DNA of 64,000 bases, from assembly GCF_013402815.2 (NCBI RefSeq), contig NZ_CP058601.1:1116001-1180000 (forward strand), in the 5' to 3' direction. Origin of the DNA: Natrinema halophilum. GTDB taxonomy: Archaea > Halobacteriota > Halobacteria > Halobacteriales > Natrialbaceae. Positions 2,192-58,367 of this stretch are shown here, piece after piece (the first letter of the stretch is position 1; every line of letters starts with the position of its first letter). The position numbers and the translations under genes were made by a program. The notes below the pieces were generated by a model. It saw only the letters and a list, made by a program, of their open reading frames with translations, had not been told where the DNA came from and made no database searches.

Positions 2192-2291
2192 GTATCCCTC
2201 GGTGACACTCTCGCGGCCAGAAGGCTGCACGTCGGTTCCGTCGCGATTCGTCCGGTAGTCGCTGAAAGGATCGTCCCGAGCATAGCAAGGT

Positions 2292-2789
2292 TCATCGCCG
2301 CAGTTCCTCGTCGATATCGGCCTGTGTGAAATCGAAGAAATCCTCCGTCTCAGGCAGTTCGACGTCGATCACGTTCAGATCCGTCGGCTTTCCCTGCGAA
2401 TCGAACGCGCGCCAGTCCGTCCGGCGGTAGGGTGCGCCGATGATGACGTGGACGCTGCCCCGGCCGAAGGTGTCCAGATCCGCATTGCTCGGACTGATTA
2501 CGCCGTTAGGATGGGAATGAATGCTGCCCAGCGCCTTCACGTCGTTCGGAATCTGATTCGTCTTGACGGTCGCGCTGACGCTATTTGACTCGGTTCCGGG
2601 TACCACGAGGATATCCGTAATGACCAGCCCGTCCGAATCCATTCCAAGTCGATCGGCCTCCGTTCCTCGGAGAAACCCCATGTACTCGCTTGGATGGGTC
2701 GCCTCCGAGGATTCTAGGGCGAACTCGAGGGTCTCCTCGGCGATTCCGAGGATTTCGCTCGAGCGAAACAGCGCGTCGAACAGCCCCAT
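2292..2789 (-). CDS. JAMM/MPN+ metalloprotease
   Basis: Predicted zinc isopeptidase of the JAB1/MPN/Mov34 superfamily. Family members cleave ubiquitin-like (SAMP) conjugates in haloarchaea. The full JAMM motif is visible in the 165-residue protein: Glu35 in HPSEYMGF, then H91-S-H93 followed by seven residues, Ser101, two residues and Asp104 ([16 protein letters not shown]). The N-terminus [13 protein letters not shown] is short with no signal, so the protein is cytosolic. It lies between ribL and the broken MaoC-like gene, all on the minus strand, and may be co-transcribed with ribL. Its relation to the two characterised Haloferax JAMM proteins cannot be settled without alignment. Confidence 0.9.
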
Positions 2790-2841
2790 ACCCCACCTCC
2801 GGCCTTGCGGTTGCTAAACGTTCCGATGCGCCCGTTATCAT

Positions 2842-5566: not shown

Positions 5567-5776
5567 GTAGTTGGAATACCTGCCGATGTAGCTGGAATAC
5601 CTGCCGATGTAGCTGGAATACCTGCCGATGGAGCTGGAATACCTGCCGATGGAGCTGGAATACCTGCCGATGAAGTTGGAATACCTGCCGATGTAGCTGG
5701 AATACCTGCCGATGTAGCTGGAATACCTGCCGAAATAGTTTCGATCTCTGCCGGAGCAGTCGGGATGTCTCGTGTT
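5567..5776. repeat. 21-bp tandem repeat array, about 8 good units plus 2 decayed
   Basis: Consensus gtagctggaatacctgccga plus a final t. Units begin at 5567, 5588, 5609, 5630, 5651, 5672, 5693 and 5714 with 0-2 differences each; units at 5735 and 5756 are strongly diverged. The period is a multiple of three, so two minus-strand frames read through it as seven-residue repeats, but neither resembles a real protein. There are no unique spacers, so it is not CRISPR. It starts 64 bp after the DHH stop. The rest of 5503-6149 contains no gene I can support; the last 100 bases before the GH97 gene are A/T-rich and probably carry its promoter. Confidence 0.9.
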
Positions 5777-39462: not shown

Positions 39463-39628
39463 TTATGGACCGGGGAAAGGGAGACGGACACGGAGGTATG
39501 GAACCCGGGGCCGCCGCCTAACTAACTCGGGTATTAGAATCCATACATATCAAAAGAATGTAGTGATAACTTCGGATATCATCGACGGAACGGGACCCCT
39601 TTTCAATGAGCCGCCGAACAGATCCGAC

Positions 39629-40266
39629 ATGAAGGGGACGCCAGTCACGGTCGCATCGGTCGACGAAGTCGGGGCCGATACTATCGCACTCGACTCGAAT
39701 CCCCCGAGGGATTTGACGCGCTTCCGGGACAATTCGTCTTACTGCGCGCGTAACCTGCGGAAGAAGAGATAGCCCGCCACTACACGCTTTCGTCACCCGA
39801 CGGAAATGAAACGTTCGAACTAACGGTCGGAATCGACCCAGATGCCGACCTTTCTCCGTGGCTCGAAGAACTCGACGCCAGCGAAACCGTCAACGTCGAG
39901 GGACCGTTCGGCCGGATCACCTACGACGACGACGGTGACGTCGTCGCAGTCGCGGGTGGTCCGGGCATCGGTGCAGCAGTCGCCATCGCCGAGGCAGCCC
40001 TCGAGACGGACCACGACGCAGCCGTCATCTATCAGGCCGACGAACCGGCTCACGTCGATCGGCTCGAGGCGCTCGAAGCAGCGGGGACGACGGTCGTCTT
40101 CGTGGACGCGAATCAAGAGGACGAACTCGCAGATGCGGACCCAACCCACCGATCAGGAGGTCAGTTGTACGCTTTCGGCTTCGAGGACTTCGTCACGACC
40201 GTCGCCGAGGCGATCGAAGACGCCGGGGGCGATTCGGATGACGCCCACATCGAGAACTTCGGATAG
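39629..40266 (+). pseudogene. FAD/NAD-binding electron-transfer oxidoreductase, broken
   Basis: Reads as a ferredoxin-NADP reductase/dihydroorotate-dehydrogenase-electron-transfer-type flavoprotein: TPVTVASVDEVGADTIALDS, then after a frame change EGFDALPGQFVLLRA, HYTLSSPDGNETFELTV, VEGPFGRITYDDDGDVVAVA, GGPGIGAAVAIAEA, and a VENFG-like end (IENFG). Two lesions: an extra C in the ccccc run near 39703 and an in-frame TAA at about 39750, before the AEEEIARHYT segment. The intact protein would have about 210 residues. Two independent defects argue for a real pseudogene rather than a read error. Confidence 0.78.
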
Positions 40267-42207: not shown

Positions 42208-44505
42208 TCAGGCGTCGTCCGTCGCGTTTCCGGTGGATTCGTTGTCGGCTGTTTCGTTCCCGTCGGCTGTTTCGTTCATATCTGCCGTCTGATTTCCATC
42301 GGCTGTTTCGTTCATATCTGCCGTCTGATTACCCCCAGCCGTTTCATTTCCGCCAGCCGCGGCTCCGTCGCCGTCGGCGGGCATCGAAAGGGAATCACCC
42401 TCTCCTGGCGGGACGATCTGCATGACGACGCCCGTGTCACCTTCCGGAACGCCTCGCCTGTTCGCGAGGACGTAGACGTTGCCGTCGGCGTCCTGACCGA
42501 ACATCCGAACGAAGTAGGGGAAGGAACCGTCTTCGCTCCCCGCGATCTGAAGTTCCTCCATATTCCATAGTTCGTCACGCGGGACCGTCTGCCCCGGACC
42601 GCCTCCACCGGCCGCACCGTCCGTCTCCGTTTCGTTTCCGCCGGCAGTCTCGTTCATGTCGGCGGACTCGTTCATGCCGCCAGTTTCGTTCATGCCGCCG
42701 GTTTCGTTCATCCCGCCGGTTTCGTTCATGTCAGCGGACTCGTTCATCCCGCCGGTTTCGTTCATGTCGGCGGACTCGTTCATCCCGCCGGTTTCGTTCA
42801 TGTCGGCGGACTCGTTCATCCCGGCAGTCTCGTTCCCACCGGCGTCGGTCGTCTGGCCCATTCCACCGTCGGGCTCGGATGCCGCGAAGATCCGCCCCTG
42901 TGGCGATTCCCGCGCCGGATCGGCCGTCCAGTCACCGAAGATGTACTTGCCCTCTAGCCCCTCGACCTGCCCGGCCTCGTAGACGTGGCCGCCGACGATC
43001 ACGATACCGACGACCTCCCCCTGGTAGATATGGGGGTACTCGACGATCGGATCCTGTAGCTCCTGACCGTTGTACGGCGGCTCGTCGGGCGCCGTGTCCG
43101 GACAGTCTTCGGGCGGCTGGCCCGGGTTTTCCGTGCTGAAGCAGTGGGTCCCTTCCTTGACGTTCCAGCCGTAATTGCCGCCCTTTTCGACGATGTCCGC
43201 TTCCTCGAAGAGGTTCTGTCCGGCGTCGCCGACGAACAACCGGTCGTTGCTGTCGAACGAGATTCCGAACGGGTTCCGGAAGCCCCAGGCGTAGTGCTCG
43301 TCGAGTCCCTGCTCAGAATCGACCAGCGGATTGTCGTCGGGGATGGAGTACGGTTTGTCCTCGCCCTCCTGGTCGACGTCGATCCGGAGAATACTCCCGA
43401 GCAAGTTCTCGCTAACGTCCTGCCCGTTCCCGCCCTCGTTGCCGTCGTACCAGTCGTCGACGTGGCCGTACATGTTGTCGTTCGCGCCGCCGCCGTCGCC
43501 CATCGGAACGTACAGATACCCGTCCGGACCGAACGCCATCGGCCCGGAATCGTGGTTGTACTGGGGCTTCTGGAACTCCATCAGGAGCTGCTCGGACTCG
43601 GGGTCGGCCTGACTGAGATCGTCGTTCGCCTGGAACTCGGAGACGACCTCGACGTGGCTCCAGCCGTCGGGCGTTTGCTCGTTCGGCGGCGCGCTGTAGT
43701 GGATGAACACGCGGCCGTTCTCGGAGAAGTTCGGGTGAGGTTCGATCCCGAGCAACCCGCGCTCGTCGTACGCTTGCCCTTGACTTGCGTAGCTTCCCTC
43801 GAACGTTCCGAGTTCGACCATCCGATCGCTGACGTCGAGAAACGGCTCGTCTTGCAGTCCCTCGTCGGTGACGACCCGGACCTCGCCAGTCTGGTCGGTG
43901 ACGAAGTACCGCGTTTGCTCTTCGTCCGCGACGGCGAAATCAGTCGGCGCGGTCATCCCTTCCGCGATGGTCTGTACGCCGATTTCAGTCCCCGGCTGGA
44001 AGAACCGCTGGTCGGCCCCACCGGTCTGTCCATCGGTCGCGCCGCCTCCGCCGCTGATCTCGAGAGAACCGCGCATGGAAGCGGGATGGACCGCACAGTA
44101 GTATTCGGCCATCTCGCTCGTCGCCTCGAACTCAAGTGTCTGGGTCGCACCCTGTTCGCTAATGATCTCGGTGCTTTCGAGTTCGTTGCCGTCTGCGTCG
44201 AGGATCGCGATGTTGTGGGGGGCGCCGTCGACGTTCTCCCAGGTGAACTCGTAGGTCGTCCCCTCCTGTAACTGAAGCGTTGGGTTCGTTTGCCCCTCGA
44301 TTTCCGATGGCGACCGGCCCTGCCAGCCGCTTACCTCGCCGCCGAATTCGAACGATTGCGATTCCTGGGCAGCGGCGAGACCACCGAAACTCGCGACGCC
44401 ACCAGCGGCCACAGCCGCCTGCAGGAGCCGACGACGCGAAGTCGCGGAGTAATCAGTTACCGATTTCGATCCAGTAGTTGGGTTTTCATCCGAGTGATCG
44501 CTCAT
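42208..44505 (-). CDS. exported cupredoxin-PQQ-type sugar dehydrogenase with glycosylation-sequon repeats
   Basis: 765 residues. Tat signal (TSRRRLLQAAVAAGG) and cleavage near AAQ48. A halocyanin-like blue-copper domain (about 50-150) has ligands His97, Cys137, His140 and Met144. The main domain (about 165-560) is a glucose/sorbosone dehydrogenase-like six-bladed propeller (ERGLLGIEPHPNFSENGRVF, YAWGFRNPFGISFDSNDRLF). Between propeller segments, and again at the C-terminus, lie runs of NET, NES, NQT and NAT. It probably oxidises a sugar and passes electrons to its own copper domain on the cell surface. The PQQ requirement is family inference. Confidence 0.9.
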   Translation of the reverse strand: MSDHSDENPTTGSKSVTDYSATSRRRLLQAAVAAGGVASFGGLAAAQESQSFEFGGEVSGWQGRSPSEIEGQTNPTLQLQEGTTYEFTWENVDGAPHNIAILDADGNELESTEIISEQGATQTLEFEATSEMAEYYCAVHPASMRGSLEISGGGGATDGQTGGADQRFFQPGTEIGVQTIAEGMTAPTDFAVADEEQTRYFVTDQTGEVRVVTDEGLQDEPFLDVSDRMVELGTFEGSYASQGQAYDERGLLGIEPHPNFSENGRVFIHYSAPPNEQTPDGWSHVEVVSEFQANDDLSQADPESEQLLMEFQKPQYNHDSGPMAFGPDGYLYVPMGDGGGANDNMYGHVDDWYDGNEGGNGQDVSENLLGSILRIDVDQEGEDKPYSIPDDNPLVDSEQGLDEHYAWGFRNPFGISFDSNDRLFVGDAGQNLFEEADIVEKGGNYGWNVKEGTHCFSTENPGQPPEDCPDTAPDEPPYNGQELQDPIVEYPHIYQGEVVGIVIVGGHVYEAGQVEGLEGKYIFGDWTADPARESPQGRIFAASEPDGGMGQTTDAGGNETAGMNESADMNETGGMNESADMNETGGMNESADMNETGGMNETGGMNETGGMNESADMNETAGGNETETDGAAGGGGPGQTVPRDELWNMEELQIAGSEDGSFPYFVRMFGQDADGNVYVLANRRGVPEGDTGVVMQIVPPGEGDSLSMPADGDGAAAGGNETAGGNQTADMNETADGNQTADMNETADGNETADNESTGNATDDA
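42228..42352. repeat. sequon-coding minisatellite, C-terminal block
   Basis: Part of the sugar-dehydrogenase gene. A 36-bp unit (ggctgtttcgttcatatctg, then ccgtctgatt and six more bases) is repeated; shorter 18-bp relatives flank it. On the coding strand it gives N-x-T/S every 6-7 residues (NET, NQT, NET, NQT, NET, NET, NES, NAT). Confidence 0.85.
42629..42838. repeat. sequon-coding minisatellite, internal block
   Basis: 18-bp units alternating gtcggcggactcgttcat and cccgccggtttcgttcat, about 11 in tandem, inside the sugar-dehydrogenase gene. Coding strand: MNESAD and MNETGG alternating, so each unit holds one N-x-S/T sequon. The period is a multiple of three and copy-number changes keep the frame. 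Confidence 0.9.
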
Positions 44506-52863: not shown

Positions 52864-53095
52864 CGATGTGACGATCCATAGCGAAGACTAATAATTCTAA
52901 CTGGATGTCTCTGGGGAATGAATCGACCTCACGCCGGTGTCGAGGTCGTGTAACACACCACAGCACAACGGAGTGACACGGATGGTCGCCAGAATCCGTC
53001 CGGGTTTTCGGCTCGTACCGACGACGCGCGGGGAGGCCGCGTATTTCCCGGGACGGCTATCAAAGCTAAGTTCGTTCGGGCGGAACTGTATGCTA

Positions 53096-54763
53096 ATGCT
53101 TCACTCGGAAGGCCCCCTACTCACTATCGACGTCGGGGAGCGAACCGCAACGGAAACGAACATCGACGATGTCCTCGAGACGCTGGTCGGCGGACGGGCC
53201 GTCGCAACGGCGCTCGCACACGACCGGATCCCGTTCGACGCGGACCCGTTCGGTCCGGAAAACAGGGCGTATCTCTCGACGGGGCCGCTACAACAGTCTC
53301 GGATGTCATTTACCGGCCGGATGAACATGACTGGGCTGTCGCCGCTAACCGACGGACTCGTCTCGACGAACGCCGGCGGCTATCTCTCGCGAAATTTCGT
53401 CGGAACGGGAATCAGCGTCCTCGAACTCGTCGGCGAGAGCAACGAATTAATTGCTATCCACGTGACTGACGAGGGTGTAGAGTTCGAGGCGGTACCGGAA
53501 CTCGAGGGTGCGACGGTTCCGGAGACGTCGGACTACATGACCGACACTCACGACCTCGGCCCCGACAACTGCATCGCCATCGGTCCGGCGGGCGAAAACC
53601 GGGTTCGGTTTGCCTCGGTGATGACGTTCGACTCGCGAGCGTTCGGCCGCGGTGGTCTCGGTGCTGTCCTCGGGTCGAAAAACGTCAAGTGCGTCACCTT
53701 TGAGGGGGATTCGGAACCGTCCGTCGACATTCCGAATCCGCCAGAAATGGACGTTCACAGGGAGGCGGCGCAGTCCGACGACCTGATGCGACGACAGGGA
53801 ACGACCGGCACGACCGAGTTCATCAACGACAACTTCTCGCTGCCGACACGGTACTTCCAGGAGCACGGATTCGAACATGTGGCCGACATCGGCGGCAGCG
53901 CAGTCGAGGAGAAAAAATACAAGAAAGGCGCGTGCTCGGCCTGTGCGTACGCCTGCAAACTGCCGACGCGGGACGAAGAGACCGGCGTCGAGACCGAAGG
54001 GCCGGAATTCGAGACCGTCTACGCCTTCGGCTCGAGTCAGGGGGTCGGTGATATCGTCGACGTAATGAGGGCGAACGAGCTCTGTGATTCGCTCGGGATG
54101 GATACGATCTCCGCGGGCGTCACCGTCGCAGCCTACCTGGCCAGCGAAGACGAGTTCGGCAACGCGGAACTCGCACAGGAGGTGACCGAGAAGATCGCCC
54201 ACCGCGATGGGATCGGCGACACGCTCGCCGAAGGCGTCGACCGCGTCCACGGCGAACTCGGCGTCGACAATTACACCGTCAAAGGGATGGAGTTCGCCGC
54301 TCACGATGGCCGCGTCCTCCACGGCCAGGGGCTCTCCTATGCCGTCGCAAACCGAGGTGCAGACCACATGTACGCCGGAATGCTGTCCCTCGAGTACAGT
54401 GGCGAACTCGATCCGGAGGGCACGCTCGGAAAGGCCGAAACGCTCGTGAAAGAAGAGAACGCGTCGGCGTTTCGCGATACCGGGATCGTTTGTGCGTTCG
54501 GCAGCGACTACCTGACCGACGAGCGCCTCGAAACGCTGTTCGACGCCGATTACGACGACCTCCTCGAGGTCGGCGCACGAACGGTCCGCCTCGAGCGCCA
54601 CTTCAACAATCGGCGCGGCTTCGATCGGAATGACGACGAGTTACCATACGAGATTCCCGACCTCGAGGATGCTGTCACGGAGTACTATGCAGCCCGGGGC
54701 TGGAACGACGATGGAACCGTCCCTCAAACGGCAATCGATCCCGTCATGCCTTCCGCGGACTGA
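53096..54763 (+). CDS. aldehyde:ferredoxin oxidoreductase (tungsten/molybdopterin)
   Basis: 555 residues, AOR family. N-terminal pterin-binding domain (LHSEGPLLTIDVGERTATET; YLSTGPLQQSRMSFTGRMNM; FGRGGLGAVLGSKNVKCVTF). Iron-sulfur cysteines occur in GACSACAYACKLP and later in ANELCDSLGMDTISAG. Oxidises aldehydes or related carbonyls to acids, reducing ferredoxin, using a bis-pterin tungsten centre. Start: MLHSEG at 53096 aligns with the family; an ATG at 53090 and a longer frame exist. A MoaD/SAMP-like gene lies convergently downstream, consistent with cofactor supply. Confidence 0.92.
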   Translation: MLHSEGPLLTIDVGERTATETNIDDVLETLVGGRAVATALAHDRIPFDADPFGPENRAYLSTGPLQQSRMSFTGRMNMTGLSPLTDGLVSTNAGGYLSRNFVGTGISVLELVGESNELIAIHVTDEGVEFEAVPELEGATVPETSDYMTDTHDLGPDNCIAIGPAGENRVRFASVMTFDSRAFGRGGLGAVLGSKNVKCVTFEGDSEPSVDIPNPPEMDVHREAAQSDDLMRRQGTTGTTEFINDNFSLPTRYFQEHGFEHVADIGGSAVEEKKYKKGACSACAYACKLPTRDEETGVETEGPEFETVYAFGSSQGVGDIVDVMRANELCDSLGMDTISAGVTVAAYLASEDEFGNAELAQEVTEKIAHRDGIGDTLAEGVDRVHGELGVDNYTVKGMEFAAHDGRVLHGQGLSYAVANRGADHMYAGMLSLEYSGELDPEGTLGKAETLVKEENASAFRDTGIVCAFGSDYLTDERLETLFDADYDDLLEVGARTVRLERHFNNRRGFDRNDDELPYEIPDLEDAVTEYYAARGWNDDGTVPQTAIDPVMPSAD

Positions 54764-54781
54764 CGACCGTTGTTTGGCAGC

Positions 54782-54998
54782 TGCCGGTTCGCTGTTTGGC
54801 TGCCGTCGGCTCGCTACTTAGCTGCCGTCGGTTCGCTGCGTAGTTGCCGTCGGCTCGCTACTTAGCTGCCGTCGGTTCGCTGCGTAGTTGCCGTCGGCTC
54901 GCTACTTAGCTGCCGTCGGTTCGCTGCGTAGTTGCCGTCGGCTCGCTACTTAGCTGCCGTCGGTTCGCTGCGTAGTTGCCGTCGGCTCGGTGTTTCGT
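54782..54998. repeat. 22-bp tandem repeats arranged as 44-bp units
   Basis: Two related 22-mers alternate: tgccgtcggctcgctactta plus gc, and tgccgtcggttcgctgcgta plus gt. Starts at 54801, 54823, 54845, 54867, 54889, 54911, 54933, 54955 and 54977, with a 3-bp-shortened copy at 54782 and a decayed end. No spacers. It starts 19 bp after the oxidoreductase stop and runs into the C-terminus of the convergent MoaD-like frame. Confidence 0.92.
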
Positions 54999-55286
54999 TC
55001 GCGTCGAACCGCCGTACACCGACGGAACGAGTCGAATTACGTTTCCCTCCGCGAGGGGCGTCTCGAGACCGTCGAGCTGGGTAACGTGTTTCGTATCCTT
55101 CGTGACGACCGTCTCACCAGCCAGTCCGGACCCGTCGTCGGCGAGGAGTCGTCCCTCGAGTGTCGGGTACGTCATCTCGAGTTCGACCAGCAAATCGCCG
55201 ACCGTTTCCGCATCAGTCTCGTAACGAACGGTCTTCCGGCCCACGTCGTCGCGAAACGGTCCGAAAAAGACACACTCGAGTTGCAC
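54906..55286 (-). CDS. MoaD/SAMP-like ubiquitin-fold protein with read-through tail
   Basis: The ubiquitin-like domain (residues 1-93) runs MQLECVFFGPFRDDVGRKTV ... NVIRLVPSVYGG with terminal Gly92-Gly93, the site for adenylation, sulfur transfer or conjugation. The frame does not stop there: 33 more residues (STRTKHRADG then Arg/Thr-rich repeat-coded sequence) follow to a TAA at 54906-54908, inside the 22-bp array. MoaD and SAMP need a free Gly-Gly end, so the tail must be removed or the protein is inactive. It sits convergent to the tungsten oxidoreductase, fitting a cofactor role. Start ATG 55286 fits the family N-terminus. Confidence 0.85.
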   Translation of the reverse strand: MQLECVFFGPFRDDVGRKTVRYETDAETVGDLLVELEMTYPTLEGRLLADDGSGLAGETVVTKDTKHVTQLDGLETPLAEGNVIRLVPSVYGGSTRTKHRADGNYAANRRQLSSEPTATTQRTDGS

Positions 55287-55426: not shown

Positions 55427-55930
55427 TTACGATGGCGTCAGTCGATCCCACAGGGACTTCATGTCCTTGGCGGTCGCCATCGTCTCGAGTTCGCGGAGGG
55501 TGGACTTCTCTTCGTCGTAGTTCGACTCGAGGGGCTTTTGGACGTCGTTACCGAGTTCGAGTTGCTCCGCCAGCGTCGTCAGCCCCTCGTAGGCGGTCAT
55601 CTCGACGCGCTCGGTCATCATGCCTGCGTTCAGGTAGACCATGTTGAGCAGTTCGTCGTCTTCGATCTCGGACTCGAGTTCGCGCCGATCCTCTTCCAAC
55701 CCGTCGAGAATAGCCGAATCCCGCGTTTCAGCGGGCTGGTCGAGCGTCGCGAAAACGTCCTCGATGCGCTGAACCTGCGTCCGAGTTTCGTCGCGATGGT
55801 CGGCAAAGCCCTGGCTCATCCGGTCGTTAGTCGTGTTACGGGCCATTTCGTCGAGCGTCTCGACGAGTTCCTGTTCGACGTAGTACTGCTGGGCGAGTTT
55901 GTGGACGAACAGCTGGTGGAGGTCGTTCAT
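55427..55930 (-). CDS. DUF892 (YciE-like) ferritin-fold protein
   Basis: 167 residues forming a four-helix bundle: LHQLFVHKLAQQYYVEQELV, FADHRDETRTQVQRIEDVFA, MVYLNAGMMTERVEMTAYEG, and LESNYDEEKSTLRELETMAT. Glu and His positions match ferritin-like DUF892 proteins, which bind a metal pair and are linked to stress. ATG 55930 opens MNDLHQLF; the longer frame upstream is shadow. Catalytic role unproven. Confidence 0.85.
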   Translation of the reverse strand: MNDLHQLFVHKLAQQYYVEQELVETLDEMARNTTNDRMSQGFADHRDETRTQVQRIEDVFATLDQPAETRDSAILDGLEEDRRELESEIEDDELLNMVYLNAGMMTERVEMTAYEGLTTLAEQLELGNDVQKPLESNYDEEKSTLRELETMATAKDMKSLWDRLTPS

Positions 55931-56063
55931 CAGCGTACGAAGACAGACACCGACCAGTCGCTTAGTCGGAGTCCACGAACACGCAGGCTCGCCGCTGTCG
56001 CCGACGACCGTCGATCGACCATCGGCGGACGACGAACGACAAATTGCCGGTTCGACGCGGCTC

Positions 56064-56636
56064 TCACTCCGACTCGAGCCCCGGTACGTCATCGGGCACG
56101 TCGAAGTCGTGGAAGTGTTCGCCCTTCTCTTTGCTGAGGATGTTTAGCGCTGCTGATGCGCCGTCGCCCGCGGCGATGACGGCCTGCCACTCCTCAGCAC
56201 GGACCATCGCGCCCGTCGCGTACAGATTGTCGACGCTCGTCTCCATCTGCAAATCGACGTCGACGGTGTCCTCGTCGTCGAACTCGACGGCGATATCTTC
56301 GGCGATCGACCGATCGGCGCCGGTGGCGAGCACGACGTAGTTCGGATCGTACTCGTCGTCCTCGGTCTCGATTCGAAATCCGCCTTCTCTCGGTTCGACG
56401 TCGGTGACTTCTTCGCCGACGCGGACGTCCGCACCGCGGTCGCGAACCTGCCCACGCGTGAGTTCCATAAATTCGTCGCCACTGATACTCCGAATCCCGG
56501 GATAGTTGAACAGGTGAGCCTTGTGCATCCACGTCTCGTCCGTGTCGAAGACGACGGTTTCGAGGCCGTTCTTTCCGGTGAACAATGCTGCGCTCAGTCC
56601 GGCGGGGCCACCGCCGATGATAGCGACATCTGGCAT
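56064..56636 (-). CDS. thioredoxin-reductase-like FAD protein, short form
   Basis: 190 residues. FAD loop DVAIIGGGPAGLSAALFTGK, then GLETVVFDTDETWMHKAHLF and LATGADRS, and C-terminal YATGAMVRAEEWQAVIAAGD. Only the FAD-binding fold is present; there is no CxxC and no full NADPH domain, so it cannot be a classical thioredoxin reductase. Such short forms are widespread in haloarchaea and their partner is unknown. ATG 56636 starts MPDVAIIGG. Confidence 0.85.
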   Translation of the reverse strand: MPDVAIIGGGPAGLSAALFTGKNGLETVVFDTDETWMHKAHLFNYPGIRSISGDEFMELTRGQVRDRGADVRVGEEVTDVEPREGGFRIETEDDEYDPNYVVLATGADRSIAEDIAVEFDDEDTVDVDLQMETSVDNLYATGAMVRAEEWQAVIAAGDGASAALNILSKEKGEHFHDFDVPDDVPGLESE

Positions 56637-56800
56637 GGGCGAAGCGACCACGACCGTCGAGATAAACGATTTTATCAGAAATAATAACTATTCGGTCAGC
56701 GATGATGGTCGCTTGCGCAGGTACGCAAGCGGCAGCATCCAGGCAATGTCACCCCCTGTCCCTTTTGTCACGAGTGTGGATAGCCAGACCACTGATCTGT

Positions 56801-58367
56801 ATGTCGGACCAGACTTCACCGAAGTCCCTGCGCGAAGAGTCACTGTGGATGGCCACGACGCCGTCGACCGAATACGCTCCCCTCGAGGATGGGCTGGACG
56901 TAGACGTGGCGGTTATCGGCGGGGGTATCACCGGTCTGACGACAGCGATCAATCTGACGGAAGCCGGTCGCACCGTCGCGGTCGTCGAGGCCGATCGAAT
57001 CGTAGAAAGCACGACCGGACACACGACGGCGAAGCTCACATCCCAGCACGGGCTGATTTACGACGAACTCGTCTCGCAATTCGGAGAGGAGAAGGCGCGA
57101 CAGTACGCCCGTGCCAACGAAGCAGCGATCGACGAAGTCAGTAGACGCGTCGAGGCCGGCGCCATCAATTGCGACTTTCATCGCACGAACGCGTACACCT
57201 ACGCCGCCTCGCCGAACGATCGACAGAAGATCCGTGACGAAGTGGCGGCTGCCCAACGAGTCGGCCTCCCCGCCTCGTACGTCGAGGACACGCCGCTGCC
57301 GTTCGAGGTCGACGGAGCGGTCCGTTTCGACGACCAGGCGGAGTTTCACCCGCGGAAGTACCTGCTCACGATCGCCGAAGAGATACAGGGGGAGGACAAC
57401 CACGTCTTCGAGGAAACGCGGGCCCTCGACATCGATCCCGGTTCGCCGTGTCGCGTCCAGACCGAACACGGGGAAATCATCTCCGACGACGTCGTCGTTG
57501 CGACGCACTTCCCGCTTTTCGATCGCGCCGGCTACTTCGCGCGGATGCATCCACATCGAGCGTATCTGCTCGCCGTTCGGGTCGCAGAGACGCCGTTCGA
57601 AGGGATGTACTACAGCACGGACTCGCCGGCCGCGACGATGCGAACCTACGCTTCGAGTGCACCAGACGGCGTCGATTCCGGGGACGGCGATCTCCTTCTC
57701 GTCGGCGGACAGGGCCACAAGCCGAGCGTCGACGGGGTCCCAACCTCCGAGCGATACCGACGCTGCGAGACGTTTGCCCGCGATCACTTCACCGTCGAAT
57801 CGATCGAGTACCGCTGGTCGACGATGGACTACTCGCCGGTCGATCGGGTCCCGTTCATCGGACAGATCGATCCGCTCGCCCGACACGTCTACGTCGGCAC
57901 CGGGTTCGGTGGATGGGGGATGACGGGCGGCACCCGCCGCAGGGATGATACTTGCCGATCTGGTAACGGACGGCTCGAGCCCCTGGGCCGACGTATTCGA
58001 TCCGCAGCGACTCACACCCGGTGCCTCGGCGAAGAAATTCCTCGAGGAGAACGCCAAAGTCGGCGGGAGCTTCGTCGGCGATCGGATCAAATCGCTGCTC
58101 GCCACGCTCCAGTCGGACGGCAAGGACGCTCTCTCGCCCGGTGACGGGCGCGTCGTCCGCCGGGCGAGCCAACCAGTGGGTCTCTACCGCGCCGAAGACG
58201 GAACGACCCACGCGGTGTCGGCGACCTGCCCGCACATGGGCTGTCTCGTCCGGTGGAACGACGCCGAACGGACCTGGGACTGCCCCTGTCACGGTTCACG
58301 GTTTACCTACGACGGAGACGTGCTCTCGGGGCCCGCTCTCGAGGGACTGCTGTATCGGGAACTGTGA
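56801..58367 (+). pseudogene. FAD-dependent oxidoreductase-Rieske fusion, frameshifted
   Basis: First part (56801 to about 57933): DAO-family domain with DVAVIGGGITGLTTAINLTE, GHTTAKLTSQHGLIYDELVS, and YVGTGFGGWGMTGGT. The frame then breaks: an extra C in the ccc at 57933-57935 pushes the rest into frame +1, where AAGMILADLVTDGSS continues to a Rieske domain with CPHMGCLVRW and CPCHGSRFTYDGD (C-x-H, C-x-x-H cluster ligands) ending at 58367. One read error would restore a full 520-residue protein, so the gene may be intact. Role: oxidation of a small amine or acid with electron transfer through the Rieske cluster. Confidence 0.85.

What the first reader, a model, noticed from the sequence alone, without database searches (positions are those of the whole stretch)
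54782..55286. SAMP/MoaD-like protein running past its Gly-Gly end into a tandem array
Residues 92-93 are Gly-Gly after a typical VIRLVPSVYGG, where the chain should end. The frame continues 33 residues through 22-bp repeats. The 44-bp period is not a multiple of three, so each gain or loss of units changes tail length and stop position. A protease must expose Gly-Gly, or the protein is dead. This could be a copy-number-controlled switch on a pterin-sulfur carrier.
Basis: partly seen in the sequence, partly recalled or inferred. Interest (0 to 1): 0.65.

Follow-up and report, generated by a model that had tools for sequence, protein, structure and literature searches.

The report
Sulfur-carrier gene that lost its stop
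A small sulfur-carrier protein gene in a salt-loving archaeon has lost the stop codon that nearly all its relatives keep right after Gly-Gly, so it reads a short way into neighbouring repeat DNA; this looks like an accidental tail that a known protease could trim, not a repeat-controlled switch.

Summary
In detail: a ThiS/MoaD/SAMP-type ORF (55286-54906, minus) has Gly92-Gly93 and then 33 more codons running into a 22/44-bp tandem array. The gene is the haloarchaeal aldehyde:ferredoxin-oxidoreductase (AOR)-linked MoaD paralogue, convergent with AOR. Of 46 orthologues, 40 stop directly after Gly-Gly; six have unrelated tails (2-33 aa). In same-genus relatives the two genes are 8-42 bp apart, here 244 bp, so array and tail are lineage-specific. 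Codon 94 (TCG in TCGACG) looks like TGAC with one extra C, or TAG>TCG; a sequencing error cannot be excluded. The copy-number switch fails: adding or removing 44-bp units leaves the tail at 33 aa while at least two units remain, and no state tested exposes Gly-Gly. Core dN/dS on this branch (about 0.16) equals that of the nearest normal relative. The genome has two JAMM proteases with the full catalytic motif, an E1, a MoaE, and normal SAMP1 and SAMP3-like paralogues. HvJAMM1 is published to cut a linear SAMP1 fusion exactly after Gly-Gly. Most likely: a neutral stop-loss tail, removable by JAMM. Low interest.

The parts
55008..55286 (-). AOR-linked MoaD/SAMP-like carrier, residues 1-93, ThiS family, ending RLVPSVYGG
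   Evidence: Pfam ThiS 34.6 bits over cut-off; NCBIfam SAMP1 56.8 bits, just under its cut-off of 60; orthologues in many haloarchaeal genomes searched
54906..55007 (-). C-terminal tail, 33 codons plus TAA, after the lost stop; codons 94-99 are unique DNA, the rest reads array units
   Evidence: absent from 40 of 46 orthologues
54771..54995 (.). 22/44-bp tandem array between the convergent genes: four 44-bp units plus degenerate units at the AOR side
   Evidence: only copy in the genome; only short or weak matches in relatives; intergenic gap 244 bp against 8-42 bp in same-genus relatives
52937..54763 (+). aldehyde ferredoxin oxidoreductase (AOR), convergent with the carrier
   Evidence: Pfam AFOR_N and AFOR_C; convergent and mostly 80-91% identical in relatives
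56064..56651 (-). thioredoxin-reductase-like FAD oxidoreductase, neighbour in many relatives
   Evidence: Pfam Pyr_redox_2
55427..56092 (-). DUF892 protein, upstream neighbour in many relatives

Best explanation
An ordinary AOR-linked MoaD/SAMP-type sulfur carrier lost, on this lineage, the stop codon that directly follows Gly-Gly, by one small mutation at codon 94. Translation then runs into an unrelated, recently expanded minisatellite that fills the gap to the convergent AOR gene, and stops at the first in-frame TAA. The tail has no function of its own. The carrier most likely still works because one of the cell's JAMM metalloproteases cuts after Gly-Gly, as Haloferax JAMM1 does with a linear SAMP1 fusion. 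Shown: the tail, its absence in most relatives, the lineage-specific array, purifying selection on the core, presence of JAMM, E1 and MoaE genes. Inferred: expression, cleavage, and continued function.
For: 40 of 46 orthologues stop right after YGG (29 TGA, 6 TAG, 5 TAA); the five other tails are 2-10 aa and unrelated in sequence. Gap to AOR 8-42 bp in same-genus relatives, 244 bp here. Tail length is what chance gives. Branch dN/dS of the core about 0.16, the same as in the nearest relative with a normal stop. Two JAMM genes with the catalytic motif, related to PfJAMM1 and AfJAMM; one MoaE, one E1. HvJAMM1 cleaves SAMP1-MoaE exactly after the C-terminal Gly and restores MPT synthase in vivo (PMC4443979); C. 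subterraneum SAMP precursors are processed by CsJAMM (PMC6043591).
Against: No second strain of the species is held, so the base at codon 94 is not confirmed. JAMM cleavage of this particular junction is untested. Purifying selection over a long branch (dS about 0.37) would not reveal a recent loss of function.
Confidence: 0.52

Rival explanations
1. Sequencing or assembly error: a spurious extra C turned a stop TGA into TCGA, and the protein really ends at Gly-Gly.
For: TCGACGCG minus one C is TGACGCG, matching the TGAC that follows GG in several relatives. A second one-base insertion relative to relatives lies 2.9 kb away, at about 57935 in an FAD/Rieske oxidoreductase gene.
Against: Frame breaks are not clearly commoner here (2 in 41 conserved ORFs) than in a relative (3 in 89). 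The position is not in a homopolymer. Codon 94 can equally come from TAG>TCG, and the nearest relative G005 has TAG.
Confidence: 0.27
2. Loss of function: the tail blocks adenylation of Gly93 and the gene is on its way to becoming a pseudogene, with SAMP1 and the SAMP3-like paralogue standing in.
For: Two other carriers with free Gly-Gly are encoded. T. kodakarensis Ubls are partly redundant in tungsten cofactor synthesis (PMC11323500). Uncut SAMP1-MoaE fusion is inactive (PMC4443979).
Against: Core sequence and Gly-Gly are intact, branch dN/dS about 0.16; JAMM proteases are present.
Confidence: 0.18
3. Copy-number-controlled switch: gain or loss of array units sets tail length and so carrier activity.
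For: The array is tandem and may be unstable; odd 22-bp steps would give tails of 11, 27 or 55 residues in a simulation.
Against: Steps of 44 bp, the near-exact unit, give 33 aa every time while two units remain; no state ends at Gly-Gly; array absent at this place in all relatives compared.
Confidence: 0.02

Closest known systems
AOR-linked MoaD genes (Iyer et al. 2006, PMC1779556)
   Same: MoaD-type gene adjacent to an AOR gene, with a pyridine-disulfide-type oxidoreductase near by; proposed to serve tungsten-pterin synthesis
   Different: here convergent with AOR, and with a read-through tail
Haloferax volcanii SAMP3 (HVO_2177) and SAMP1
   Same: same family, C-terminal Gly-Gly; best solved-structure match 2m19, E 1.3e-12
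   Different: this genome has closer counterparts of both (L039, 2m19 E 3e-36; L040, SAMP1 E 3e-22), so this is a third paralogue
Ubl/SAMP precursors with C-terminal tails, e.g. C. subterraneum CsUb-pre and SAMP precursors (PMC6043591)
   Same: residues after Gly-Gly that a JAMM protease can remove
   Different: there cleavage was shown; here the tail is lineage-specific and cleavage is untested
MoaD-related protein 1v8c (Thermus, organism from memory)
   Same: MoaD domain followed by further chain (168 aa; match ends at residue 89)
   Different: about 80 further residues there, a 33-aa repeat-derived tail here

Membership tests
ThiS/MoaD sulfur carriers (PF02597) | profile match over the curated cut-off | tested here: met
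   34.6 bits, cut-off 22.5
ThiS/MoaD sulfur carriers (PF02597) | Gly-Gly at the very end of the encoded chain | tested here: not met
   Gly92-Gly93 present but followed by 33 residues; the mature protein could still end there
SAMP1 (NF041918) | equivalog score of at least 60 bits | tested here: not met
   56.8 bits; an orthologue scores 64
AOR-linked MoaD | gene directly adjacent to AOR, conserved across species | tested here: met
JAMM-processed Ubl precursors | cleavage exactly after Gly-Gly by a JAMM protease | not testable with these tools
   JAMM genes present with catalytic motif; cleavage not tested
JAMM/MPN+ proteases (for L037 and L038) | E...HxHx7SxxD motif | tested here: met
   HSHPRGPARPSETD and [14 protein letters not shown] read

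The most novel reading that the evidence does not exclude
The carrier is made as an inactive precursor whose tail must be cut by JAMM, giving a protease-gated step in tungsten-pterin supply for AOR, fixed in this species after a stop-loss mutation.
Probability: 0.12. Interest if true: 0.4.

Novelty: new member of a known kind. Interest (0 to 1): 0.17.

Why it matters
If the base is right, it is a natural example of a ubiquitin-like carrier that has recently gained a tail, and a test of the idea that a JAMM protease makes such stop losses harmless. Six of 46 orthologues carry unrelated short tails, which fits that idea. It changes nothing in the known mechanism.

Tried and rejected
Copy-number switch: simulated and rejected. 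Array as a known RNA: no Rfam match. Array as a dispersed repeat: only this copy in the genome, short or weak matches elsewhere. Structured 3' end: both strands fold better than shuffles (z -7.6 plus, -4.4 minus), but each unit holds an imperfect palindrome (GCCGTCGGC), so tandem copies pair with each other by construction; not pursued. AlphaFold model from three sequences had mean pLDDT 38 and was not used. Naming the strain through its plasmid gave no near-identical record. Search for excess indel errors in the assembly was inconclusive.

Full report
What is in the sequence. The minus-strand ORF 55286-54906 encodes 126 residues. Residues 1-93 match the ThiS family and score just under the NCBIfam SAMP1 cut-off. 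Gly92-Gly93 lie at 55013-55008. Codon 94 is TCG, and 33 residues follow before TAA at 54908-54906. Six codons after Gly-Gly (STRTKH) are unique DNA; the rest reads the end of one array unit and then whole units of a 22-bp repeat that alternates between two types, giving a 44-bp higher-order unit.

Which gene it is. It is convergent with an aldehyde ferredoxin oxidoreductase gene, and this arrangement is kept across the genus and beyond. Iyer et al. [quoted passage not shown] The genome has two further carriers: L040, which matches SAMP1 structures best, and L039, which matches 2m19 best (that 2m19 is Haloferax HVO_2177/SAMP3 is from memory). Both end at Gly-Gly. So the gene is a third, AOR-linked paralogue.

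Relatives end at Gly-Gly. Among 46 orthologues, 40 have a stop immediately after YGG (29 TGA, 6 TAG, 5 TAA). Six have tails: 33 aa here and 10, 9, 6, 4 and 2 aa elsewhere, with no shared sequence. The tail is therefore derived in this lineage, and stop loss in this family has happened more than once.

The array is also derived. In same-genus relatives with the pair adjacent, 8-42 bp separate Gly93 from the AOR stop; here 244 bp do. The repeat occurs once in this genome, and searches of 119 genomes gave only short or weak matches elsewhere.

How the stop was lost. Removing one C from TCGACGCG gives TGACGCG, which resembles the TGAC after GG in several relatives; the nearest relative, G005 (82% identical), has TAG, from which TCG is one substitution away. 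These cannot be told apart. A sequencing error is possible: another one-base insertion lies at about 57935. But conserved ORFs are broken about as often in a relative (3 of 89) as here (2 of 41).

The switch idea fails. The reading frame enters the array at the gene-proximal end and stops within about 80 bp. Removing one or two, or adding one to four, 44-bp units gives the same 33-aa tail; removal of three or four gives 43 or 35 aa. Odd 22-bp steps give 11, 27 or 55 aa in the simulation. No state ends at Gly-Gly. A period that is not a multiple of three therefore does not by itself make tail length depend on copy number.

Is the protein dead? Core dN/dS on this branch is 0.12-0.20 depending on outgroup, the same range as the G005 branch (0.12-0.21), although G005 has a normal stop. 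That speaks against an old loss of function but not against a recent one. The genome encodes two JAMM proteins with the catalytic motif, an E1 and a MoaE. HvJAMM1 cuts a SAMP1-MoaE linear fusion precisely after the Gly of SAMP1 and, in vivo, restores MPT synthase activity; without jamm1 the fusion is inactive (PMC4443979). CsJAMM processes C. subterraneum SAMP precursors (PMC6043591).

Verdict. The regulatory reading is not supported. Which of neutral tail, sequencing error or recent loss of function holds needs a second strain or a look at the protein.

Noticed in passing
window 56702-58367 (+): FAD-dependent oxidoreductase with a C-terminal Rieske-like part is broken by one extra base near 57935 (GGCACCCGCC against GGCACTGCC in relatives).
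   Followed up: partly
window 39578-40263 (+): Conserved gene broken by a one-base deletion near 39700 and an in-frame stop further on, compared with G017 and G005; looks like a pseudogene.
   Followed up: partly
window 54764-55010: The array folds into a long stem on either strand, strongest as the AOR 3' side transcript (z -7.6), because each unit is an imperfect palindrome; might act as a bidirectional terminator between the convergent genes.
   Followed up: partly
window about 2250-2800 (-); L038 1384-1881: AfJAMM-like JAMM protease gene in the same window, about 52 kb from the carrier.
   Followed up: partly
L056 (G014): Carrier orthologue with an in-frame 10-residue tandem duplication (ELEAAYPGLEGELEAAYPGLEGEL).
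   Followed up: no
window 5567-5733; 42238-42835: Other tandem arrays in the window (21 bp x 8; 18/36 bp units).
   Followed up: no
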